Assembly (NCBI RefSeq): GCF_026914185.1
Contig: NC_070558.1
Location: forward strand, 6,147,501-6,211,500
Origin: Puccinia triticina
Taxonomy: Eukaryota > Basidiomycota > Pucciniomycetes > Pucciniales > Pucciniaceae
Direction: 5' to 3'
DNA length: 64,000 bases
Each line of letters opens with the position of its first letter. Within the stretch, counting starts at the first letter, position 1. The position numbers and the translations under genes were made by a program. This document shows, one piece after another, positions 18,505 through 62,538 of this stretch. The notes beneath the pieces were generated by a model. That model was not told the origin of the DNA and made no database searches. It was given only the letters and a program-made list of their open reading frames with translations.

Positions 18505-19582
18505 TCAAAGGCCGGACCAGCTATGCACGCAGAATGACCATGTTGAGCTTAGCTGGGACGGTGATTGGGGGCGTAGCTGGGTCAATAGGAGTCTTGAGGG
18601 CAAGGGAGTGGGATGTGGTTGGGATTTGCCAAGGAATGTTGACGCAGCGGGTAGTAGACAGGTTTTGTGCCGGACGGGGAAAGGATGGGATACAAAGCTT
18701 GGAAAGGGGGTTGAGAAAATCAATGATGGGGGCCATTCGTGGATGGAGGAATCATTCAAAGGACAATTGCTAATGATGTGGCTGGTTTGCTTGCATTTGA
18801 AACATTTGTACTTGCTGTGCTGGGGATTGGTCGCCATGACCTACATGTTATTGTTGTGGCTGACAACAGAAGGCAAACGCTTATGTGGAACGGATGTTGA
18901 ATGGAAGTGAGCTGAAGGACTCAGTGGATCGAACTCAGTGTATTGCAGCAGAGAGTGTCTTCCAAGTTTTCTCAAAGGTGATAGGAGGATGATTGTTGAG
19001 GGAAACCTCCGCATCAACCGATCAATCAAATTCAAAACAAAGGGGGGTGCCAGGTGCAACATTCATATGGATTATGAGAGGAAGGAGATCATCATACAGA
19101 AAGGAAGTCCCCATGCTGTTCAGCTCATCCAACATGCTCTTCATTTCAGTCACCACTCACGCCGGGTTTGTCAAGATGTCAACTGCCACACAACTGAGCT
19201 GTTGAAAGATCCTCATCATCCTTGCCTTGGTAACCCCCGCAAAATGCGCCTTAATTGCCTCCAGGATGTCCCACGCCGTGTTGAGGTCCTGTAATTTGGT
19301 CTTCATGGTTGGGTCAATGACACCCAAGACAATTTGTTGCCCAACACCAACCATCTGCGGGCAAACACAGGTGCCACTGAAAAAATCACTGTTGTCCAGG
19401 AAGCTCTGCCCTATGCCTCCTAAGCTTTGCAACCAAACCATAATATAGTTAGCTCCATCTGCCTGAAGAAAATTGGCTTCCCCAAATTTGTTGATTGCCG
19501 CCTTGACCAGACTATTGACCGCTTGTTGATCCGCAATCAGGGACAAGTCGTCCTCCTCCCTCCTGGCCTGCAAGCCAGCCAC
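18505..19582 (-). pseudogene. Copia-1 Gag
   Basis: The frame at 19,157-19,582 reads as the UBN2/retrotrans_gag-like part of a copia Gag, with the segment MKTKLQDLNTAWDILEAIKA typical of that fold. The frame at 18,505-18,837 carries the zinc knuckle CFKCKQTSHIISNC (CX2CX4HX4C). The two are in different phases. The minus-strand frames above 19,582 toward the 5' LTR are not recognisable and are probably leader. Confidence 0.75.
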
Positions 19583-20260
19583 GTGTTGTCACTGATGGCG
19601 ATGATTGACATGACCATGTGGAATGATTGCTCATTGTTGTCGCGGAGGGAACCAGGAGTGTTGGCATCACAAGGAGAGTGTTGTACTGGCATGTTGAGGT
19701 GGAGAAGGTTGTGCAGAAAGAGGTGGACCGGAAAAAGGGTTGAAAGGAGTGTGATAATGTGGGAAGGTGAGGTGGAATAATAGGAAGTGAAGAAACAGAG
19801 GAAAGAAGGAGGGCGCAAGGTACTTTTATATTGGGAATGTATAGTCTTGATTTGAGAGAAGTAGTAGTAAGAGTGACTACGGATAGAGAGTGCAACCGTC
19901 ACAGAGAGAAAAAATGTGGTCCACGTAATCATTGATGTCACCGAGAGGCTGACTTCCATGGTCACGTTAAAGGCAAGGTTCTTGTGACAAGAAATAAGCG
20001 CAGATGTCGTAATTGATTGAGTCGGAAAAGCAGGGTTTTCAATATAAGGACAACACCTTGAGATATGGATAAACATCCATGGGGATGAGGAAAATAGTTA
20101 TAGATGAAATGAGTTTGGCGGGTATACGGTAAACGGCACCAGAAAATGGGAAGTATCAGACGGCACACAGGCAATGAGAGATGCCACACAGGCTAGTAAA
20201 ATCTTGAAAGTAGAATAAGAGATGAAGTAATCCAAGGTCTTTACACTTGTAAGCAAGAAA

Positions 20261-20271
20261 GGCTCATAACC
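20261..20271 (-). other. Copia-1 primer-binding site
   Basis: On the minus strand the bases right after the 5' LTR read GGTTATGAGCC. This matches the complement of the anticodon stem-loop of initiator tRNA-Met (CTCATAACC, containing the CAU anticodon). Drosophila copia is known to prime from an internal cut in tRNAi-Met. The same word follows the Copia-2 5' LTR and the first TRIM LTR. Confidence 0.8.
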
Positions 20272-20466
20272 TCATAGAGCACGAACAACAAACAGATGAA
20301 TAATATTGGTAACAACAGATATTATGAATGTAAGTACAAGATATTATCTATAGGTCAATACAAAAGGTCAGTGCATACAAAGCACGTTTGAGAAATATGG
20401 AATATTATGTAATATTACATGTAGTATGGGGTAATCTTGTGTGCATAGTTACACCGTACTACAACA
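20272..20466 (-). repeat. Copia-1 5' LTR
   Basis: About 195 bp. It pairs with 15,343-15,535. Shared blocks include ATAATATTGGTAACAACAG and the palindromic AATATTATGTAATATTAC. The differences between the copies, together with the decayed frames, indicate an old insertion. Confidence 0.9.
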
Positions 20467-20512
20467 GAAACAGCAATTTATCCAAGTGTTTTCCATAGAG
20501 GACACCACATTA

Positions 20513-20692
20513 GGGGGGTTCATATTGGCAACTTTGTCACCATTTTTATCACATTTTATCATAACATTTGCACAAATTTTTCAACCATCAGAAAAAGTGG
20601 TTTGCAGAAGAATCTGATGAACTTGTAAAACCTAAAAAGTTTGAATGACAAAATGGATAAAAATGCTGCTAGAAATTCAATGTGATCCCCCC
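20513..20692. mobile_element. 180-bp MITE with TA flanks
   Basis: The ends are inverted repeats: the left end reads GGGGGGTTCATATTG and the right end, reverse-complemented, reads GGGGGGATCACATTG. A weaker match continues inward (CATTTTTATC shared). A TA dinucleotide lies directly outside each end (20,511-20,512 and 20,693-20,694), as in Tc1/mariner-type elements. There is no coding capacity. Confidence 0.7.
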
Positions 20693-20694
20693 TA

Positions 20695-23336
20695 TTGTTG
20701 CAATGGAACTTGAAGAAACTGATTGTGTTTAGCCATCACTGTAGGATCTTGAGCTTTTCCTGGTTGCTTACCAGGAGCGCAGAAGGAGGTGGGCTGAGTC
20801 CAAGGCACGGCAATAGTGCAGACAGCTAGCTGCACAAGAGCGCGGAATCCACCCGCAACAGGACGCCTGTCACGCAGCAGGTGAGGACCAAACCTAGTTA
20901 GTCAAGACTCAACCGGTGTGAAACTCCTGAAAGATCAGGAAAGAGCTGCGAGGGGAAATAGTCAACTACACTACTAATAATGTAGGAGAGGCTACAACAG
21001 GTGCTGGTCTGGCCTCTTGACTAATGCTGATGGAGAAAGAGTTACACTGAGAAAAGGAAAATGGTGTGGCTGATGATTTTTTTTGACTTAGATGACTTTA
21101 ACACTTTATGAGTTTGAGGTGTATCAATCCTACTGAGGGAGAGAGTATAAGTGAGACGGGGGAAAAGCAGAAGCTCTTTGGAGTCACTCTGTAGCAGTGC
21201 TACAAGGATTGAGTGACAGGCATCCAGGATGTGGACGCGCTGTACATGCTAGAGTCTTCCTACTCCGGCCTAGCGCGGCCAGGAGTTAAAGAAACTGACA
21301 CCTCATGCATGTTACATACGAGAGGCGCATCTTATGACACGTTTAGTTTCCTGTTTCATTTATGTTACAACATTTGTACACGTCTCTTACGTCTGTACTC
21401 TTGAGCAGTTCAATGAACCAGATCATTGACAGGGGTACTAACAGTGACAAATAGATAGTGTTGGGGCCAATATTGGCCCAAAACCAAACATCAGACAAAC
21501 AGTGTGGCTCCTGAAACTACCAAACTCACGGTGTTTTAATATACCAATTCATGTGGCCTTCAAGTTTTTTTTTTAGTTTTTTTTTCATTTCAAAGGGGAA
21601 AACAACATGTTTTGATTCTCAGGATATTCAACAGGAAAGAAAAGGGTTTCAGACATGCCCAAGCCTTTTTTTTTTAGAAAGAAACATGTATAATGAGAAA
21701 GAAAAGACACTGTTGGTTTTGTAGAAATACGCACAGAGGCCACTGTTGATTTCACAGAAATAAGCACAGAGGCCAATGGCCAGTACAAGAGATATAGGGA
21801 CAAAAGAGGCAAATATCATTTGGTTGCTAGGTATTTGTCGTGGTTATCAACATTGTCAAACAAGAGGGTCAAGCCAAATCCAAGTATTTCCTTGCAATCA
21901 AGGTCTTTGGGCTTGAAGGCTTGATGAGAAGAGAAGTTGTTCTCAAGCAAAATTTTAACAACCTTGTTCACATCTCAAACGGCAAGGTATTTGACGTAGT
22001 CTCAAATAGTCGCTGGGTTTGGATTGTATATAAATGCAGGATTGGGATTGCTGGAATATTTTGCATTGCTTGCAAGGTATCAGTGTTTGCCTCCAAAGAA
22101 ATCTGCACCTTTTTTGCCGGTGTGAGTAATTGCCACTTGATCAGCAAGCTGGGTGGACCATGAGCTGTCACACCAGGCTTCCCTTCAATCTTCAAAGGAT
22201 AATGTGTCAGATTAAAAAGTTCACCATGTTGCAAAGGAGATCAAATGCAAACTAACCATCAAATTGGCCCATCTTTGAATGACAAACTGAGTCAACAAGG
22301 TGTATTGGTGTAGATTTCTGGGGTTGATATAGACAGGGGAGTATTGATTGTATAGAATGTACTTCAACTTCTTGGCTGGTTTCTTTGGGCTGCTTCTTCT
22401 TTCAACGACTATTGGCCTTTGGGGGAAGAGGGTTTGATTGATCTGGCATGATTTGTTCAATTTCTTCCAACAATGATTCCGACATGGTTCTGATGCTGGA
22501 TGAAGAGAACACGGCCTAGCCTTGAGGGTTTATTGGGGTGGACAGATGGTATGCTTTGACAGGCCGCCTGAGGGGATTTGATGCTGAGCATGATGCATTA
22601 TTTGGCCTAGCAAGCTTGGTGCTCAGCTCTGAGTCCAAGTTTATTTGTGGACTTGGTGCGGGTGAAAGCCTGATTGCTCACAGTTGCTCTCATTTCCGGT
22701 GGAGGAACAGGAAAATATTTTCAAGCTGGTAGCTGTATGGATTTCCAGCTGGCCACCGCTGACGGGGAAACTCTAAAAACAAAAAACAAAACAAAAAACG
22801 GCCCCAATCCAAGCTTTTCTGGAAACACAATATGTAAAAGATGAAATAATGATGAGCAGAAGTAAGAATGTACATAATGAAGATGGGCATTTGGTAATTA
22901 CTACATGAGCTATGAAGGAATGTACTGCTGATTCATATGAAGGGGAAAATGAGTAACAAAGTGATGAAAGATCTGCAGTCCTATGTAGCTATGATACTAA
23001 TGAATGATGTATGTAATAATGCTAAGGATATGTATGAAGAAAATACCTGCCAAAACTATGTATGCCAATAACTTCTGATCCATTTGGAAATCCTAGGTGA
23101 AATGAGTGGGGGTGACTAGGGGTAAAATGGGGTGTAGAATCTGAATATGAAATAATAATGAGGTATTTATGAAGGGTGTATGAGATACAGAAGTGGTGGT
23201 ATGAACAGGAACAGGGTTACCACAAGCTGCCCCAACTTATTGTCTGTCCCCAGACACTTGAGAGGAAAGGGAATGAAGAAGAGAAATTGGGAAGAAAAGA
23301 AATGAGGAAAAGGAGTTAGTCCAATTGAAGGAGGGA
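20695..23336. other. Region without a recognisable gene
   Basis: No frame I can support as a gene. There are runs of T at 21,565-21,590 and 21,668-21,678 and a C/A-rich stretch near 22,770-22,800. Short open frames show no family resemblance. The region is likely old repeat sequence. Confidence 0.5.
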
Positions 23337-23396
23337 AGTCTGTATCCAACCAAAGAGGCCAAGTCCAAGAGGTCCAAATCTAAGGAGGGAAGTCTG
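23337..23396. repeat. Host tandem repeat split by Copia-2, left part
   Basis: The phrase GTCTGTATCCAACCAAAGAG occurs at about 23,338 and again directly after Copia-2 at 29,313, with a further copy near 29,370. The last five bases before the element (GTCTG, 23,392-23,396) are the left target duplication. Copia-2 therefore landed inside a short tandem array. Confidence 0.8.
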
Positions 23397-23529
23397 TGTT
23401 GTAGCCCAAGGGGCTACGCATGTTCAACCTCGCCGCAGTAGCAGTGTATTCAGCATCCGGGATCAGATCCCGGATGCTGAGCTTGGATTCACAACCATTA
23501 GAGTCACTCGAGCCTGCCACGTCACAACA
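23397..23529 (+). repeat. Copia-2 5' LTR
   Basis: 133 bp starting TGTTGTAGCCC and ending CACGTCACAACA. It contains two inverted repeats: GTAGCCC/GGGCTAC at 23,401-23,417 and a perfect 31-bp palindrome at 23,450-23,480. No TATA box is obvious. The LTR is very short for a 5.9-kb element. Confidence 0.95.
23450..23480. promoter_or_regulatory. 31-bp palindrome in the Copia-2 LTR
   Basis: TCAGCATCCGGGATC is followed by one base and then its exact reverse complement GATCCCGGATGCTGA. The right LTR (29,233-29,263) has the same structure with two mismatches. In RNA this would form a strong hairpin inside the LTR transcript. A role in 3'-end formation, packaging or protein binding is possible, but nothing in the sequence decides between these. 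Confidence 0.8.
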
Positions 23530-23541
23530 GGTTATGAGCCC
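23530..23541 (+). other. Copia-2 primer-binding site
   Basis: GGTTATGAGCCC directly follows the LTR. It is complementary to the anticodon stem-loop region of initiator tRNA-Met, implying priming from an internal tRNA fragment as in Drosophila copia. The identical 12 bases follow the TRIM LTR at 59,673. Confidence 0.85.
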
Positions 23542-24183
23542 TTGACGCTCTTTTCTTTCCGACACCCGACCACCATCGATTGCCAAGCTGAATCAGCTTG
23601 CTTATCCGACTGACTAATCATCAGGAAGAAGATTGATAATCCTATCAACTGCTGAGTCAAGTCTAAACTTGATCCGTTTGGTTAATCCGGGCATCCCAAC
23701 AACATCCCGGAATCGACTCCGAAAGCGTAATAGAAGTGATAGTTTGTTTTCAAAAATTTTCATAGGCTAGGGGGACTAGCCATCCTTCTGAAAACAAGAC
23801 TGTGGCACGCTTTTGAATGCTGGTGATCATTGGAGGAAACAGACTTGATCCTATATCTTGCCCAACACGTGGATCGACTCAACTCAATCTTCTACATTTG
23901 TTTATCACTTTCTTTTTCATTACTCTATATATCCGACTATCATCCCATCAACTCACACCCTCTATATCCATAACTCAATATTTAACTCTTTCTCCTTCCG
24001 TTTTTCCATATCCGACAAATCTGAATATCCTTCCTATTTTTTTCGTCTCTTCTCATCAATAACCCCGTTTTTTTTCCTTTTTCTCCACCACTCCCATTAT
24101 ATACATCATCCAATTTTTTTTTTTCCGTTTTCAACCTGCTTACAACAATCACTTGACTCCCAAACACCTACACAGCCAAACTG

Positions 24184-25781
24184 ATGGACCCAGCAAAGGA
24201 TCGACAATCGACGTCGAGATCGGCCACCACGTCAAATTGGAACATCAACGACTTGTCTCACAGAGCTAGACTGGAGGAAGATATCGCCATCCTTCAATCC
24301 AACCTCGAAAGGCTGCCGCCGAGCCCTGGCACAACAGTCGGCCAGGGACGTCAAAAAGGCAAAGCCCCGCAAAACAAGCCGAGAGACCCTGCTCCAGCCA
24401 ATGAACGTGGACCTCCGCCCCACATGGATCCCAGGTTGCCCCCATCTCACAAATACCACCTTTGAATGTGACTGACAATGCTCCGCCCGTGCAACGTAGA
24501 CCAGCCCGCTACGATGAGAGGGATGAGTTGCTGGCCAAGGAGATCAGGGATTTCGAAGAAGCAGAGTTTCACCTTTGACAAAGCAAACTCGTGGGCAATG
24601 CAATCCAGACGGCGAAGGCACAATTTCGATCTGTCAACACTCTGAAGGCGGACGGGTCAAATTTTGGCGACTGGTACCGCAACATGGCGGAGGTGGCAAG
24701 GTTGAATCTGAAGGATGCCCGTTTCTTTTTTGAGGCGTGCAACAACTCGACGTACGAAAAGATTGGCCGTGCTATCCTCATTGCCAGCATTGATCAGTCG
24801 TTGGTGGCGGAGATGCAAGCACTACCGACTTGCTTCGTGATGTACTCAAACCTATTGGCCAAATTCAAGACATCTTTGAGGGCCGCACAAATGAACATCT
24901 TCAACAAATTCAGAAGATTCAAGATCGACCCCAAGAGACATAACGCCGGCATAGCGTCCGATCTGAAAGATCTTTATGTCAAATGGGCCTCGATCAACGT
25001 AGCAATCGGAGTGGACTCGTTTCTTGGTTTTGTGCTGCAAGCGGCGGTGATGGACTCAAACGCGGAATACAAGAAAGCATTTGAGTTAAGAGTCAAGCAA
25101 CTGGTCCAAGATGACAAGAAAGGCCGCTGCCCATCTTTTGAGTCCATCATGTTGGCCCTGGACATCTGCAAGGACCAACACAAACATGCGACTGAGTTGG
25201 ACGGCGATCACAACCCACACTTTTCACCTCTCAACCCTCCAGCAGCTCTGATCATGTTGACGAGCAACCCGGCGGACTTCGACGTCTCGGCTTTCTTAGC
25301 TGAAGTGAGTGAAGACAAGTGGGTCGATGCACTGGACTTCTATGCAGTAACACCCCACAAATGTTGGCAATGCGGCGGCGAAAATCACTACGCGAAGAGC
25401 TGCCTGGATCGCCCTCGAGCAGGGCAACCAAGCCGAGGGAATGGGCAAGCAATCGGCACAATTGTCGGCACGATCTACAGACATCTTCCCAGTGGCACAG
25501 CGATGGACTCCGGCCGCTTCCCGAAGACCAATTTCCGGCAAACGTTTCACCCCCCCCACCCAAAACCAAGAACATGCCCGGCACTTAGCGGACTACTACC
25601 GACCACGGTATCAGCCCAACCAACGGTCAGCCAGCCAGGCTCTTTCGCAACAGGGGTCGGCTACTTCGAATCCGACAAAAGGGGGGGTGACTGCTCACAT
25701 TGTGGAAGTCAACGGTCTTCCAGACGACCTGGACAACCTGGACTTCCATTCGATGGCGCTCGGGGAAGATTTAGTGAGTGA
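24184..25781 (+). pseudogene. Copia-2 Gag
   Basis: The N-terminal frame (24,184-24,465) begins at an ATG about 650 bp after the LTR and is rich in Pro, Lys and Arg. It ends at a stop, and the body of Gag continues in another phase at 24,591-25,781. There the UBN2-like Gag core occurs (residues about 20-190 of the second frame) and a zinc knuckle CWQCGGENHYAKSC near residue 263. The overlap with the pol frame (25,441-25,781) means a +1 frame change is needed to pass from Gag to protease. I cannot tell a programmed shift from a lesion. Confidence 0.85.
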
Positions 25782-27870
25782 GACTGCCATTTTTGACACT
25801 GGGGCGTCCCACGGGTTCACCGGTTCTAAATCATTACTCCATGATTTCCGCCTACTCCCAAAACCTATTGGTGTTTCTGTAGCTACTAGTGGAGCAGGGT
25901 CAGCAATCACTGGCATGGGGGCCCTAAAGTTCCTGGCCCCTGATGGATCTGTCATTGTGATCAGACAAGTACTGTATTGTGAGCAGGCAAAGACCACGCT
26001 CATATCAATGGCAGCCCTGCGAAAAGCTAACGCACTCGTTGCCTATGACAACGCCACAGATACGTTTCACATCTTGCGCTCAACAGGAGAGCATCTCTTT
26101 GACTGTGTTTTTGAATCCGCAAAAAATAGGTGGTGCTTGCCCTATCCAATGATCAGATTGGATAGTCAGCAGGGAACTCATTTAGGCGATTGCCATGTGC
26201 TATTCTCAAACACCTCAACGCCAAGGCCGCAAATGTCCAATTCAAAATCCTCTCCCCCTGCCTCTTCCCTTGCTTCCTCGCCCAAATCCCTTTCTCTCTC
26301 TTCTAAATCCTTGTCTCTTCCTTCCAATCATACTTCTGTTTCGTCTCTTAAGCCTGCCCCTGATGACAATAACATATCAATTCTTGCATCTAAAGCTAAA
26401 GTGCCACTGTCTGATGAAGTGTTCAGGGAACCAGTGGCAAAAGCGACTGACTTTTGCTGGAAGTCAGAAGACCTTACAAAAGATGAGAAGAAACTACTCT
26501 ACTATCACAGAGTGTTTGGTCATGCTAGCCTCCGACACATTAGGAGCATTGTGTATGGACTACCTGATGAGATCCCAAGTGGCAAAATACATTGCCCTGT
26601 GTGTGCAATAAGCAAGAGTACTCAAATTAACCCTTTAGCTTCTTCACTTACGACAGTCAAACGCTTAGATGTTTTGGCGGCGGATTTGATGGGTCCTTTT
26701 CAGGTAGATTCGATTGACGGCGGACGGTATCTACTCACAATGAGAGATGTAGCGACGGGCTATGCGTTCGTGAAGGTGCTGAAACAGAAGTCGGAAGCAA
26801 ATCAACACATCATTGACACCATCAATCGCTTAGAACAAGCGGTAGGGAAGAGAGTCCAAACACTCAGGAGCGACAACGGAGGGGAGTTTGCCAACAAGAA
26901 GCTAGCGGATTTCCTTGCGGAGAAGGGCATTCAAGCGGAAAAGGCACTCCCTTACCATCACTATCAGAACGGGGTGATAGAGAGATTCAACAGGACAGTC
27001 GCGGATACCGGGAGAACAGTTCTTATTGACAGTCCCCTACCAAAAGAATTCTGGAGTTATGCTTTCGTCTGGGCGACATACGTGCTCAATCGGCTGCCCA
27101 ACAAAGCCAGTAAAGAACTGACTCCGTATGAACGAATGTTCGGCAGAAAACCTCAATATGACAACTTTCGAGTGTTCGGCAGCACTGGCTACATTCACAT
27201 TCCCCACGAAAAGCGAAAGAAACTGGACAAATGGGTGGTTAAAGGTCTTGTCATCGCACACTTAGAACAGAGCAAGGGGTGGTTATTCTGGATTCCAGAT
27301 CAAAAGCGCTTTGTGTCTTCGGCAATGGTCCGTTTTCCCGATGAAGAACCAACATGTGTGATCCCAGTTGAGACAAACCCAATATCAGATGGTCAGCAAT
27401 TGACACCGGAGGGCCCTTCGCAAAAGCTCTCAGTTGACTACATCATGAACCTGCTCCAACTGGGTGATTTCTCTCAAGAAATAGAGTTCACGAATCAGGA
27501 GTTAATTGTAGATAAAATTTTGGACTCGTGCCAGTTCTACGCCATCTCAGTACCGAAAACTTTCCGCCAAGCAATGAATTCACCGGAGAAAGAAGCGTGG
27601 TCAAAAGCCATCGCCACCGAATTGTCCAATCTCAAAGAAATGAGGGTTTGGATTCTGAAGCTGAAACCAGAAGACAAAAAAGCTCTAGGAGGGAGATGGG
27701 TCTTTGCTACAAAACCGGACACGGATGGCAATGGTCTACGTTGCAAAAGGGTTCATGCAGGTCGAGGGAGAAGACTTCACCGCGACTTTCGCGCCGACAG
27801 CAACCTTTGTTTCCTTACGTCTTTTACTGGTGGTTGCTGCGGCATACGGTTGGCCGGTTCAGAGTTTTGA
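25441..27870 (+). pseudogene. Copia-2 protease, integrase and start of RT
   Basis: An 809-residue frame. Protease: AIFDTGASHGFTG at about residue 115. Pre-integrase zinc region: HRVFGHASLRH followed by KIHCPVCAISKS. Integrase core: ADLMGPFQVD (Asp), LRSDNGGEF (Asp) and NGVIERFNRT (Glu), all catalytic acids present. A C-terminal region follows, then the start of RT (GGRWVFATKPDTDGNG). The frame is then lost near 27,737 and RT continues in the phase of 27,704-28,165. The integrase looks undamaged, so in this copy the lesions concentrate in RT. Confidence 0.92.
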
Positions 27871-28165
27871 CTTTGTGGCTGCATATCTCAATTCCCCGAT
27901 CAACGAGGAAGTGTGGGTGAAGCCTCCAGAAGGGATGAAAACGCCGCCGGGACATGCGCTACTTCTCAACAAAGCTCTTCATGGCACGCGTCAGGCCGCT
28001 AGATGTTGGTGGCTACACTTGAAAGCGGTTCTGAACAAGTTTGGTTACTCGCCGTCCCAGTACAACAACAGTCTGTACATCCTCCGCCACCCGGAAGAAG
28101 CAAGTGTTGTGTGGCTGCATGTTGACAATGGGGTGGTCACGGCGTCAAGCCCCGCCCTTCTATGA
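27704..28165 (+). pseudogene. Copia-2 reverse transcriptase core
   Basis: The frame carries VAKGFMQVEGEDFTATFAP, then QSFDFVAAYLNSPI and KALHGTRQAARCWW, all hallmark copia RT segments. It then reads VVWLHVDNGVVTAS at the catalytic box. Copia-1 has VDDG at this place; here the second Asp is Asn (codon 28,128-28,130). A TGA stop follows about nine codons later, and the remaining RT (LKDILKIKWSTGLDS region) is readable only past the stop. Confidence 0.9.
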
Positions 28166-58236: not shown

Positions 58237-59542
58237 GATTCAATTTGGGATGGTAGAATGTTGTTGACCGGGCGACTTATCGAATTGATGGAGGGAAACT
58301 TTCGGAGTTAGGTGGATTTGCTTTATCCCACAGGGTCCTACCCTCTGTTTTCTCTGTTGCTTTCACTCAGCCGGGGAGGTTCCACGGTGAGTGGGAGTTA
58401 AAATGGGCCTCCGTGGGGGCGTTAAAGCGCTACAATATGTAAATTGGTCACCTGGCAATGTCAATCCCGCTTCTTCTTGAGGAAATGTCTTGAATGGCCA
58501 TTACCGACATGTCCCAGCAGCGATCTGCATAGCCTCCGGACTTGCTGGATGGAAGTGTGATTTGGCATTGGCATTTCTGACCGAGGCAGTGGCGAGTTGC
58601 TTGACTGTAGGAACTATTCAGCTCATTGGGCGCCCTTAGAACCACCTCATCTATTTCTGCACCTGGCACGGCTTGATTTGCAGTGGTAATCATCAGTTGT
58701 CCAAGGCCTCAGCTGCATCTCATCTCCAAACCATCCAACTCGACACGCCCGCGCTACTCCAAGTTACACCTGGCGACAAAATCAGCCCACATCACCATAT
58801 CTTGTCCTTCCCATGGCAAATCGGCCGCTTCACGTCTGTCTATGTACACACTTCGGCTGCAGCGACGCACAGCATGAAGAATACGGTCGTGGAATTGTTC
58901 CTGGGAGGGTTTTGTCCCCCCGTGTTTATCGGGATCATCAACAGAAATTGAAAGTTGAGCAATCCAAGCGCAAACCTTCACAATTGGCCAGCTCTGCCGC
59001 TGCGTCAGCCCCTGAAGCCCATGTGAGTGAAACCAACGGGTGAGATGAGTTCTTCCAAGGAGCGTTGCTGATCCACCGTTTTGGCAGCAGAGTGGCACAA
59101 GTGCCTCTGCAGGTACCACAGAAATGACTAGTATCACATCTGGACACTTTGTGCCACAAGAGGCATTTTGCAAGCAGGTTATGGTGCAGATGGCTTTGTC
59201 GGTGATGGCTAACAAGCTGACTAAGAATGGAGCGGTGGATTTCCTGAAAGCCGCCCGGGCGAATGTTTCACTTCGCGCACAGATCTGGAGCATGAAGAAT
59301 CAGACAACGATTGATCCAACCCCAATTCTAGAGCAGATTCCCAGGACTCAGGAAGCTGTCTTCCATCGTCTTCTTAAGCCCAACCTGACCATACATATCT
59401 GCTGCAAGAAATGCTTTGCACTCTACCCGATCAATTCGGCGCCTGGAGATGGTCCGCAAACTTGTACTCAGCCCTTCCTTTCCCCCAGGCAGGGCTTCTG
59501 CAAGTGGGCCAAGGCCGAGAATCTGAATCCGACGTGCGATCA

Positions 59543-59672
59543 TGTAGAGGTAGTATATGTTGGTACACCTCACACCTGTGGATATAGCTCAACGGTAGAG
59601 CAACCCAGCATGCATTGGGGAGATGCGGGTTCAATTCCCCCTGTCCGCACTATTCCTTTTACTCGCTCTACA
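59543..59672 (+). repeat. TRIM 5' LTR
   Basis: 130 bp. Composition in order: a 35-bp leader, a tRNA-like segment (59,578-59,649), TTTT at 59,657-59,660, and the inverted terminal CTCTACA. The primer-binding site follows directly. Confidence 0.93.
59578..59649 (+). tRNA. tRNA-like sequence in the TRIM 5' LTR
   Basis: It folds as a cloverleaf. The acceptor GTGGATA pairs with TGTCCGC (two G-U pairs). The D-arm is GCTC/GAGC, and a T-arm carries loop TTCAATT. The A box TAGCTCAACGG and B box GGTTCAATTCC fit the Pol III consensus. The anticodon arm (CCCAG/TGGGG around CATGCAT) has an A-G mismatch and lacks U33, and the T-stem has one mismatch. The formal anticodon would be TGC (Ala), but it is probably not a translating tRNA. 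Its more likely role is an internal Pol III promoter. Confidence 0.65.
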
Positions 59673-59767
59673 GGTTATGAGCCCAGCGCTATAGGCAGCT
59701 GCGTACCTGGGATGAGCCTCTGGGAGGATTAGTGGGCTCTGTCACCGGTGTAGGTGTACAGGGGGTG

Positions 59768-59897
59768 TGTAGAGGTAGTATATGTTGGTACACCTCACAC
59801 CTGTGGATATAGCTCAACGGTAGAGCAACCCAGCATGCATCGGGGAGATGCGGGTTCAATTCCCCCTGTACGCAATATTCCTTTTACTCGCTCTACA
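59768..59897 (+). repeat. TRIM 3' LTR
   Basis: 130 bp, identical to the 5' LTR except for three bases (T/C in the anticodon arm, and two C/A changes near the 3' end of the tRNA-like part). It is followed by the right target duplication GATCA. Confidence 0.93.
59803..59874 (+). tRNA. tRNA-like sequence in the TRIM 3' LTR
   Basis: Second copy of the 72-nt segment. The A and B boxes are identical to the first. The acceptor stem has one extra mismatch (TGTACGC) and the anticodon stem gains a C (CGGGG), which makes its closing pair G-C. A TTTT run follows at 59,882-59,885. Confidence 0.6.
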
Positions 59898-62538
59898 GAT
59901 CAGCCACTGTACAACGCCGGTCTGCCTGCTCGGACGTTTCCTTTCGTATCACTGAGATCATGGTTGCGGGGCCGGCTATCCCAACCTCCGTTTGAAGCCT
60001 TATTAGATTCAAGTCTGGTCGCCAGTAACTGGCCGGATGACCAGCCATTGGAAGACGTGTGGCACGGCTGGGTGTGGCAAGAATTTCCAAATTTGGACAA
60101 CGGTACGGGATTGTATACAGCACACTCCGGAAACCTGGTCTTCAGTTTATATCTCGACTGGTTTAGCCCCGGTGGATCCTCAAATCTCGGGAAGCACACG
60201 ACAGTTGGGGCAATAACTTTGGTTTGCCTGAATCTGCCCGCAACTCACCGATATAGGTTGGAAAATCTCTTTCTCTTCGGCATCATTCCAGGCCCTAAAG
60301 AGCCAAAGCTTGAACAGATCAACCATATCTTGCGACCATTGGTGGAGGAGCTGAAGGAGTTTTGGGGCGGGGTTTCCTTTGAATCGACTAGTCTCCATCC
60401 CACCGGGAGAACCATCCGTGCGGCAATATTCCCACTCATTGCGACCTCCCGGCCATACGGAAGACCGGCGGATTTGGGAGTCACGCTGCCCAACTGTTTT
60501 GTGCCTTTTGTCTCCTCACTAAGGACAACCTGCACGAGGCAGATACAACCAAATTCCCTCAGCGCACTGACGAAGTACACCGGAACCATGCATCCGCTTG
60601 GCTGAAGATACAGAATTGCACAGAACGCAAGAAATTCACCAAAAAGCATGGCGCCCGATGGAGTGTGCTGAATGAACTCACGTATTGGAAACCGGTTACA
60701 TATTGCTCGATTGAAGTGATGCACGCCTTGGTGCTGGGTGACTTGAAAGATCACAGCTTCCGATTCTTAAATTTGCCCTTGGCTGGTGCGCAACTTCAAG
60801 CATCACAAGAGATAGACGAGGCATGGCAGAACGACAAGTCCTACTCGGAGATGCCCTTTGGTGATCACCCGCATTTGGCAGAGAGTCAAAAGGGGAAGAG
60901 GAAACTGACGAGCGACATCACGGAAGCGCCCGCCGCTGAAAGACCTAGCAAACAAACCCGTCAAGCTCCTGTTGCCGGTGGATGTAGCCGCATGGCGCCG
61001 ACAGAAAGGAAATCTTCACAGATTCGTGCCTCCACAGATCCTAACTCTCAACCATCCCCGCACGCCCACTCAGACACGTCATCCACGCACTCCTACGCAT
61101 TGCGTCAGAGAAAGAAAATGTCTTACACCACGTCCGATGATCACGAATCTAGCGAATCTGAGGAGGAGGGTGGCAGCGATGATACTGTCAGGGGTGTGAG
61201 AAGACAAGCAAGAAACCCACCTTTGCCAGCTGATGATATGAGCTGTCCTCGATTGTTGCCTGAAGAACTTGATGTGGTCCGACAATGTATCCTACACACT
61301 GTCCTGCCGTCTTGGATTGACCGAGTGCCACACAATCTAGGTTCTGCTTCTCACGGTTCATTAAAGGCAGCCGAGTGGTTAATCTTGTATAAGGTGTACT
61401 ACACAATGGCACTCATTCCAATCTGGGTCAGATGTCTGGCAGACACGGGCACCACCCAGAGCAAAAGAAGGACTTCATTGCTATTAGAATCAACTACCAC
61501 GCTTTCTCAAGTGGCACACTTCCTGACTCTCCCTAGGATAAAGTTGCAAGATTTGGCCGAACTTGACAGTTTAATATTGAAATACCGAAGATGTCTGCAA
61601 ACTGGCTGGCCGACAAAATCAAGCAAACCAAACTTGCATCTGACTCAGCATTTCTCTGATGTAATCCGGAGGTTTGGTCCTCCTCGCTCAACGGCAGCAT
61701 GGGCACAGGAGAGAGTGAACGGGATGTTACAGAGGCTCCCTACCAACAACCACCTTGGTGAGTGCTTGTCTCCCTTTGGCTGCAGTCATAATGGCTGATG
61801 TTGAGTGATGCTTATTCGCAGGAGACATCCCCAAGACTCTGCTCAAGAAGTGGCATATGAACTCAACTCTCCGCTCTCTCCAAAATGACGCAACCTATGC
61901 TCAATCCTCTGCCGCCGAGGATTCAGATAAAGGGGCATTGATCAAAATGAACCTTCAGCAGCCTTTGTTTGTGCGGTGGCAAAGGGCTGTGGGCCTGCAA
62001 CAGCGGAGGAGTGATGGAAAACCAATGACGCAATTAGACCTCAATTTGAATCCTACTGTGGACTCTGTCAGCAGCATCCAGATTGACCAGAAGACCTTCA
62101 CAACAAAGGAGAATCACGAGGGAAACTCAATGGTTGAGTTCTACTTAGGCAATGTTCAACGATTTGGAGAAACACACCACATCTTCCAATCAGAACAAAC
62201 ACCGGGGACAACATGGCTCGCGGTGAGGCCATTCAAAGAACTACAAAGGAAGGATGATCCGTACGGAGATTACCCCGATCTCAACTGCAGATTAGTCAAG
62301 GCCGAACTAGAGGTGATGATGGTGGTTAATTGTGCACAAGTGATTGGGCATGTGGCCATCATGCGGCATGTTGCTGGGACGTTTGGTCTGTCCACTGAGA
62401 CAATCAGTGCCGTAGGATCACGCACCGCAGTAAGTCCTTCTGCTTGGCAGGGTTACCCAGTGTCTGTTTGGCACGAGTTGACTTTTTTTTGTGGGCTTTT
62501 ACGTTGTGCAGGGCTGGGAAGGCCTTGTGGATGATTGA

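What the first reader, a model, noticed from the sequence alone, without database searches (positions are those of the whole stretch)
59543..59897. Miniature LTR retroelement whose LTRs each carry a whole tRNA-like sequence with a Pol III promoter
Seen directly: 130-bp LTRs with TG...CA ends, a PBS, a purine tract, a perfect 5-bp target duplication (GATCA), and inside each LTR a 72-nt cloverleaf-like segment with A box TAGCTCAACGG and B box GGTTCAATTCC, followed by TTTT. Known background: plant Cassandra TRIMs carry a 5S-like Pol III promoter in the LTR. Inference: this element has solved the same problem with a tRNA promoter, merging SINE-like transcription with LTR-type reverse transcription. 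A TTTT inside the LTR raises the question of how a full genomic RNA from R to R is made. I do not know whether this family has been described.
Basis: partly seen in the sequence, partly recalled or inferred. Interest (0 to 1): 0.92.

Follow-up and report, generated by a model that had tools for sequence, protein, structure and literature searches.

The report
tRNA-bearing mini-retrotransposon with Copia helper
A 355-base mobile element, present with 5-base insertion scars at dozens of sites in a probable rust-fungus genome, carries a tRNA-like sequence in both of its ends and matches the Helenus elements described in 2024; two hybrid insertions that join it to an end of a larger Copia retrotransposon suggest that Copia proteins likely copy it.

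Summary
Window 59543-59897 is LTR (130) - internal (95) - LTR (130) with a GATCA duplication. Rfam's tRNA model fits each LTR (43.0 and 35.7 bits). The genome holds 138 LTR and 58 internal matches (reversed-pattern control 0), and 53 of the 74 repeat chains examined have exact 5-bp duplications, 51 of them different. The kind is already known: Kojima 2024 named tRNA-bearing TRIMs 'Helenus', with 113 families in rusts. Helenus-4_PTrit (tRNA-Ala-TGC, 133 predicted genes) is the likely name of this family, since ARAGORN reads 100 of 124 LTR copies here as Ala-TGC; I could not compare with the deposited consensus. What I did not find in print: 2 of 58 internals have a foreign 5' LTR, joined within 16 nt of the LTR/PBS border and flanked by exact duplications. 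That LTR belongs to a Ty1/copia family in the same genome (about 5.1 kb, one copy with an intact 1,409-aa ORF). This fits plus-strand strong-stop transfer between two co-packaged elements and names a helper candidate. Pol III transcription remains predicted only.

The parts
59538..59542 (.). left copy of target-site duplication GATCA
   Evidence: sequence; (L031, 0 mismatches)
59543..59672 (+). 5' LTR, 130 bp
59578..59649 (+). tRNA-like segment in 5' LTR
   Evidence: RF00005 43.0 bits
59585..59595 (+). A box TAGCTCAACGG (predicted Pol III promoter)
   Evidence: sequence; this exact form in 90 of 119 LTR copies
59628..59638 (+). B box GGTTCAATTCC (predicted Pol III promoter; commonest form in the family GGTTCGATTCC)
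   Evidence: sequence
59657..59660 (+). TTTT, predicted weak Pol III terminator
   Evidence: sequence; TTTT in 117 of 119 LTR copies
59673..59767 (+). internal region, 95 bp, too short to code for any transposition protein
59673..59689 (+). primer-binding site GGTTATGAGCCCAGCGC, predicted to pair with the anticodon arm of initiator tRNA-Met
   Evidence: sequence; primer type as described for fungal Helenus in PMC10886601; the tRNA letters are recalled, the host tRNA gene was not retrieved
59760..59767 (+). short polypurine-like tract AGGGGGTG before the 3' LTR
   Evidence: sequence; Copia X has GTGGGGGGGAA there
59768..59897 (+). 3' LTR, 130 bp, 3 differences from the 5' LTR
59803..59874 (+). 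tRNA-like segment in 3' LTR
   Evidence: RF00005 35.7 bits; ARAGORN Ala-TGC
59882..59885 (+). TTTT in the 3' LTR
   Evidence: sequence
59898..59902 (.). right copy of target-site duplication GATCA
   Evidence: sequence

Best explanation
This is a non-autonomous miniature LTR retrotransposon of the Helenus type, with a tRNA-like segment in each LTR; it is likely transcribed by RNA polymerase III from that segment and likely reverse-transcribed and integrated by proteins of a Ty1/copia family in the same genome. Shown: LTR-internal-LTR units and solo LTRs at many sites, exact and mostly different 5-bp duplications, a common PBS, and two chimeras in which a Copia LTR is joined to the TRIM internal region at the PBS. 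Inferred: transcription starts near the tRNA-like 5' end of the 5' LTR, reads through the first TTTT in a minority of rounds and stops at the TTTT of the 3' LTR. This would give an RNA of about 308 nt with an R repeat of about 83 nt (tRNA-like plus trailer) at both ends, U3 of about 35 nt and U5 of about 12 nt. Stopping at the first TTTT would give only a dead-end RNA of about 83 nt. A 5' half of initiator tRNA-Met is predicted to prime first-strand synthesis. The chimeras are best explained by plus-strand strong-stop DNA of the Copia element that annealed to the PBS complement of a TRIM cDNA in the same particle.
For: RF00005 hits in both LTRs. 138 LTR 24-mers and 58 internal 28-mers at up to 3 mismatches, reversed-pattern control 0. 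Exact 5-bp duplications in 53 of 74 chains, 51 different, against about 0.07 expected by chance (74/1024). 11 of 46 LTR pairs are identical, 20 of 46 identical outside CpG columns. Chimeras L034 and L044: foreign LTR, then TRIM internal, then TRIM LTR, with duplications CACGA and TCCAG. The foreign LTR has 32 matches in the genome, the two chimeras included; five pairs lie about 5.0 kb apart and one 5.7 kb. L100 carries an intact 1,409-aa ORF with RVT_2 (1.1e-41), SH3_retrovirus and Pol_BBD, plus rve and gag_pre-integrs below their cut-offs. The TRIM shares 8-10 of its last 11 LTR bases and the first 11 PBS bases with six of six Copia copies examined. Copia copies L100-L104 also show 5-bp duplications. 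Host tRNA genes: first T-run of at least 5 in 17 of 22, exactly 4 in 3 of 22, so TTTT would be a weak stop here.
Against: No transcript was seen: Pol III use is inferred from boxes. The TTTT columns are not clearly more conserved than other non-CpG columns (2 changes in 476 cells against 100 in 14,042), so selection on the terminator is not shown. In 4 of the 22 host tRNA genes the first T-run lies 23-31 nt away, so those runs may not be the real terminators. The tRNA-like RNA does not fold better than shuffles (z -0.67, -0.24, -1.03). The nearest Copia X LTR outside the chimeras is only 91% identical to the chimera LTR, so the true donor subfamily was not found in this assembly. The Copia PBS matches the TRIM PBS over 11 nt only and then differs. 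Blastn of the TRIM LTR and internal region against the ten Copia X loci gave no match at E up to 1, so the likeness is confined to the LTR ends and PBS.
Confidence: 0.75

Rival explanations
1. The element is transcribed by RNA polymerase II from a TATA-like sequence in U3 (GTATATG, LTR bases 11-17), as ordinary TRIMs are, and the tRNA-like segment serves another role, such as packaging, dimerisation or insulation.
For: TATA-like stretch in U3; no direct evidence for Pol III; the window's B box has lost its CpG.
Against: A and B boxes are near-canonical in most copies, and 10 of the 11 columns with five or more changes are CpG columns. No AATAAA occurs in any of 119 LTR copies. ARAGORN still makes a tRNA call in 111 of 124 LTR copies.
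Confidence: 0.2
2. Copia X is only one occasional partner; another Copia family with the same half-tRNA PBS mobilises most copies.
For: 159 sites in the genome carry TTATGAGCCCAGCRH, about 100 more than this family's 58 internals account for; the chimera LTR is 91% or less like any Copia X LTR outside the chimeras; the TRIM PBS differs from that of Copia X after 11 nt.
Against: Both chimeras found among 58 internals point to the same Copia LTR family, and the LTR ends of that family match the TRIM's without having been chosen for it.
Confidence: 0.3
3. The two chimeras were made after integration, by recombination or gene conversion between a Copia LTR and the TRIM 5' LTR.
For: The two LTRs share most of their last 11 bases and the PBS core, so short homology exists.
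Against: A converted tract would have to begin exactly at the LTR's first base, although the two LTRs differ there and the flanks are unrelated, and both chimeras keep exact 5-bp duplications of their own (CACGA, TCCAG).
Confidence: 0.06
4. The repeats are amplified tRNA genes or a SINE, not an LTR element.
For: tRNA-like segment with Pol III boxes.
Against: Two LTRs around a fixed 95-bp interior with PBS, solo LTRs with 5-bp duplications, and no A-rich 3' tail in the sequence.
Confidence: 0.01

Closest known systems
Helenus (Kojima 2024, PMC10886601), probably Helenus-4_PTrit
   Same: TRIM under 1000 bp, tRNA-like LTR, 5-bp duplications, PBS of the initiator-tRNA anticodon-loop type, rust genome (probable here), Ala-TGC type; 133 predicted tRNA genes in that family against 138 LTR matches here
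   Different: No difference found. Sequence identity to the deposited consensus was not checked. The chimeras, inverted compounds and a same-genome Copia partner are not in the parts of the paper that I read (parts 1-4 of 6, legends, tables, passages).
Cassandra (plant TRIM with 5S rRNA LTR)
   Same: Works alike: small-RNA gene with Pol III promoter inside the LTR; tandem LTR-internal arrays also occur (PMC7215508, passages)
   Different: 5S-derived and in plants; here tRNA-derived, and the predicted R is about 83 nt, against 18 bp quoted for Cassandra in PMC10886601
Ty1/copia elements with half-tRNA primer (Drosophila copia, Ty5; as cited in PMC10886601)
   Same: PBS complementary to the anticodon region of a tRNA; 5-bp duplications in the Copia X copies examined here
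   Different: This element codes for nothing and has a tRNA-like LTR
Template-switch complexes of Triticeae LTR retrotransposons (Sabot and Schulman 2007, PMC1950507; abstract and results section read)
   Same: Complex insertions flanked by one target duplication, ascribed to co-packaged RNAs; L039 and L055 fit that description
   Different: Those are explained by a jump between the R regions of similar elements and have like outer LTRs; L034 and L044 have two unlike LTRs joined at the PBS

Membership tests
Helenus | TRIM structure: short, two LTRs, no coding capacity | tested here: met
   355 bp, 130+95+130
Helenus | tRNA-derived sequence inside each LTR with A and B boxes | tested here: met
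   RF00005 43.0 and 35.7 bits; boxes
Helenus | 5-bp target-site duplications (fungal Helenus) | tested here: met
   53 of 74 chains exact, 51 different
Helenus | PBS shared with Copia elements | tested here: met
   11-nt PBS core identical in six of six Copia X copies, then different
[quoted passage not shown]
   fits initiator tRNA-Met as recalled and as in PMC10886601; host tRNA gene not retrieved
Helenus | polypurine tract before the 3' LTR | tested here: inconclusive
   AGGGGGTG only, interrupted by T
Helenus | identity with the deposited consensus Helenus-4_PTrit | not testable with these tools
   Repbase and the paper's supplement not held; indirect: 100 of 124 LTR copies called Ala-TGC against 133 Ala-TGC genes in Table 2
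Helenus / TRIMp3 | actual RNA polymerase III transcription | not testable with these tools
   no RNA data here
Cassandra | 5S rRNA-derived LTR | tested here: not met
   only tRNA reached an Rfam cut-off
tRNA-derived SINE | no LTRs or PBS; insertion by target-primed reverse transcription, duplications of variable length | tested here: not met
   LTRs, PBS and 5-bp duplications
autonomous Ty1/copia | codes for Gag-Pol | tested here: not met
   95-bp interior; Copia X itself does code

The most novel reading that the evidence does not exclude
The genome preserves fossils of co-packaging between an element with a tRNA-type (Pol III) promoter and its autonomous Copia helper: in two independent insertions the helper's complete plus-strand strong-stop LTR was transferred onto the miniature element's cDNA at the shared half-tRNA primer site, which names the helper family and shows that the two RNAs were reverse-transcribed in one particle.
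Probability: 0.6. Interest if true: 0.65.

Novelty: already known. Interest (0 to 1): 0.45.

Why it matters
The element type is described, so the finding as given is not a discovery. The added evidence matters because who moves the tRNA-bearing TRIMs of fungi was inferred in that paper from PBS likeness, duplication length and one Copia of another species (PMC10886601). Two Copia/TRIM chimeras in one genome give a direct trace of a shared particle and a named helper candidate. They sharpen the R-region question into a testable one: a Pol III RNA with a terminator inside its own LTR must read through one copy and stop at the next. Finally, most LTR copies are read as tRNA genes by standard software (111 of 124 tRNA calls), so tRNA counts in such genomes are inflated, as Kojima already noted.

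Tried and rejected
Systematic difference between 5' and 3' LTRs (which would have spoken against LTR-type copying): the first hit list hinted at it, but one search shows mixed, mostly CpG changes and 11 of 46 pairs are identical. Rejected.

Selection on the TTTT or on the boxes within the family: not separable from the background once CpG columns are set aside.

Palindromic GCATGC in the anticodon loop as an RNA dimer site (the thought comes from Ty1 kissing loops, PMC5454406, abstract only): present in 119 of 119 copies, but the family is too young for that to mean much, and the segment folds no better than shuffles. Left as speculation.

Other families with the same PBS in this genome (159 sites, 100 listed) could not be read, so the U5, terminator and box comparison across families was not done. 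The pattern was meant to leave out this family but was written wrongly and includes it.

The host initiator tRNA-Met gene could not be fetched: the tool was busy five times.

Copia X in the window: blastn with the chimera LTR and two Copia loci found only a 55-bp match of a locus flank.

Full report
What is there. At 59543-59897 the window holds two 130-bp direct repeats around 95 bp, bounded by GATCA on both sides. Each repeat starts TGTAGAG and ends CTCTACA. Infernal finds Rfam's tRNA family in both repeats at 43.0 and 35.7 bits, above the cut-off of 29, and nothing else in the 64-kb window reaches a cut-off. ARAGORN calls the second one tRNA-Ala-TGC. Folding the 72-nt RNA alone gives no better energy than shuffles (z -0.67, -0.24 and -1.03 for three copies), so the tRNA likeness rests on sequence and Rfam's model rather than on a stable fold.

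Copies in the genome. The window lies in a 122.8-Mb assembly of 18 contigs. A 24-base LTR piece has 138 matches and a 28-base internal piece 58 matches at up to 3 mismatches; the controls with the pattern read backwards have none. The first call lists only 100 of its 138 places. I fetched all 58 internal copies and the 16 listed LTRs that lay outside them; together these hold 123 of the 138 LTR matches, so 15 LTR places were not seen. The chains found were: 51 LTR-internal-LTR, 2 LTR-internal-LTR-internal-LTR (L039, L055), 2 internal-LTR (L034, L044), 3 LTR-internal fragments and 16 LTR alone. Some of the 51 have a badly decayed or truncated LTR (for example L051, L079, L081).

Insertion scars. 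Exact 5-bp duplications flank 53 of the 74 chains (39 LTR-internal-LTR, 2 double units, 12 solo LTRs), 51 of them different; 3 more have one mismatch, and 18 have more than one. Of the 18, inspection explains six chains by compound or chimeric insertions, below. About 0.07 exact duplications would be expected by chance among 74 (74/1024). LTR pairs are young: 11 of 46 are identical, and 20 of 46 are identical outside CpG columns. For these counts 10 of 129 LTR pieces were dropped, 5 for length and 5 for divergence.

Chimeras. L034 and L044 carry a different LTR in place of the 5' LTR, followed by the TRIM internal region and 3' LTR. Each is bounded by an exact duplication, CACGA and TCCAG. The foreign LTR is 107-108 bp, starts TGTTGGGG and ends CACTACA. 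A genome search found 32 matches, the two chimeras included (100% and 97%), the best others at 91%; five pairs lie about 5.0 kb apart and one 5.7 kb. Those six pairs were fetched. L100 has an intact 1,409-aa ORF with Pfam RVT_2 (1.1e-41), SH3_retrovirus and Pol_BBD; rve and gag_pre-integrs were found below their cut-offs. This is a Ty1/copia element, here called Copia X. Of the three copies whose ORFs I listed, L100 is intact over this length, L102 is broken, and L103 has an ORF of 1,062 aa. Five of the six pairs, L100-L104, show matching 5-base flanks; L105's LTR start was not resolved.

Where the chimeras are joined. Both chimeras have the foreign base at LTR position 125 (A, where the TRIM has T) and the TRIM base at the twelfth PBS position (C, where all six Copia X copies have T). 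If the donor had the PBS of those six, the join lies within CTACA plus GGTTATGAGCC, 16 nt across the LTR/PBS border. In standard LTR reverse transcription, plus-strand strong-stop DNA holds one LTR plus the PBS and is moved by PBS pairing (established knowledge, not from a call). Its transfer from a Copia X molecule to a TRIM molecule in the same particle would give this structure. This is inference from the anatomy. A normal round makes two identical LTRs, so such a chimera is not expected from one template.

Independent support for the pairing. Copia X was reached through the chimeras, not through likeness to the TRIM. Its LTR end nevertheless matches the TRIM's last 11 LTR bases at 9, 8, 10, 9, 10 and 10 of 11 positions in L100-L105, and the first 11 PBS bases are the same in all six. 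At every offset of two Copia loci, 11 of 11,741 positions reach 8 of 11, the true LTR ends of one locus among them. Against this, the PBS of Copia X departs from the TRIM's after 11 nt, blastn of the TRIM LTR and internal region finds nothing in the Copia loci at E up to 1, and no LTR of the donor subfamily (97% or more alike) was found outside the chimeras.

TTTT is present in 117 of 119 LTR copies, but so is almost everything outside CpG, so conservation proves nothing. In 22 tRNA genes of the same genome, judged nuclear by hand from the 30 loci (11 are related tRNA-Asp genes; 8 loci with mitochondrial-like or uncertain tRNAs were left out), the first T-run of 4 or more within 50 nt is at least 5 in 17, exactly 4 in 3, and absent in 2; in 4 of the 17 it lies 23-31 nt away. 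A run of 4 is thus at the weak end for this host. I infer that a leaky TTTT lets a minority of transcripts cross the 5' LTR; the same site in the 3' LTR then ends them. R would be the tRNA-like segment plus trailer, about 83 nt. For Cassandra, multi-element transcripts were likewise presumed to come from reading through intervening LTRs (PMC7215508, passages).

Decay. 146 of 246 substitutions in 119 LTR copies fall in 12 of 130 columns, all CpG, and 140 of these are C-to-T or G-to-A. The window copy is one of those with a damaged B box CpG. This is what methylated CpG would give; methylation itself was not tested.

Comparison with what is known. Kojima 2024 (PMC10886601; I read parts 1 to 4 of 6, the figure legends and tables, and passages) describes Helenus: TRIMs with tRNA-like LTRs, 113 families in Pucciniales, 5-bp duplications in fungi, mostly anticodon-loop PBS with initiator tRNA-Met dominant, Copia as the likely mover, and a table with 133 tRNA-Ala-TGC genes from Helenus-4_PTrit. 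ARAGORN reads 100 of 124 LTR copies here as Ala-TGC, 11 as unclear and 13 as none. Species identity is not given by any search; 18 contigs fit Puccinia triticina (PMC10627818, one passage), while one P. triticina assembly is reported at about 147 Mb per haplotype (PMC8358450, passages), so P. triticina is likely, not shown. A search for TRIMp3 and Helenus gave that paper, a 2026 meeting report that mentions it (PMC12859917, passages) and one unrelated hit. Searches for TRIMs with Pol III and for co-packaging or strand-transfer chimeras of LTR elements gave partial listings (30 of 80, 1 of 1, 12 of 113 and 12 of 16 papers). They named template-switch work in Triticeae (PMC1950507; abstract and results section read) but, in the listed titles and abstract starts, no Copia/Helenus chimera. 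The library lacks most subscription journals.

Verdict. The observation and the TRIM reading are right; the kind is already published. The new part is the pair of Copia/TRIM chimeras with their duplications, which turns an inferred helper into a named candidate.

Noticed in passing
L054 (G000:C8:7121950-7123310), 328-1037: Two complete elements stand tail to tail with their 3' LTR ends directly abutting and one outer duplication AACCC, so they look integrated as one inverted dimer.
   Followed up: partly
L074 (G000:C17:3400470-3401650), 315-816: A reverse element, 17 bp that repeat the LTR's first 15 bases, and a forward LTR share one outer duplication GGACA: another inverted compound that looks inserted as a unit.
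   Followed up: partly
L039 and L055: Double units LTR-internal-LTR-internal-LTR with exact outer duplications ACTCT and AACCC, as in template-switch complexes or by unequal recombination.
   Followed up: partly
window 59124-60605: The element sits inside an open reading frame whose downstream part matches Transposase_21 (tnp2); insert plus duplication is 360 bp and the two halves are in the same frame, so it seems to interrupt a CACTA-like transposon gene; the upstream part alone has no Pfam match.
   Followed up: partly
window 23530-23540 (+) and 20261-20271 (-): Two further copies of GGTTATGAGCC (0.02 expected for the pattern), possibly primer sites of other Copia-type elements; but no direct repeat of 60 bp or more was found in 19500-28000, so no LTR pair supports this.
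   Followed up: partly
L067 and L073: Two insertions have TA instead of TG as the first bases of both LTRs and still show an exact (L067) or one-mismatch (L073) duplication, so the terminal G seems not essential.
   Followed up: no
LTR columns 51/52, 74/75, 84/85, 90/91, 104/105, 122/123: Substitutions pile up at CpG (146 of 246), including those inside the A and B boxes, as methylation-driven decay would give.
   Followed up: partly
genome, 159 sites: The pattern TTATGAGCCCAGCRH occurs about 100 times beyond this family's 58 internals, some pairs 329 bp apart (C2:4731622, C8:5355323), which may be other TRIM families with the same primer site.
   Followed up: no
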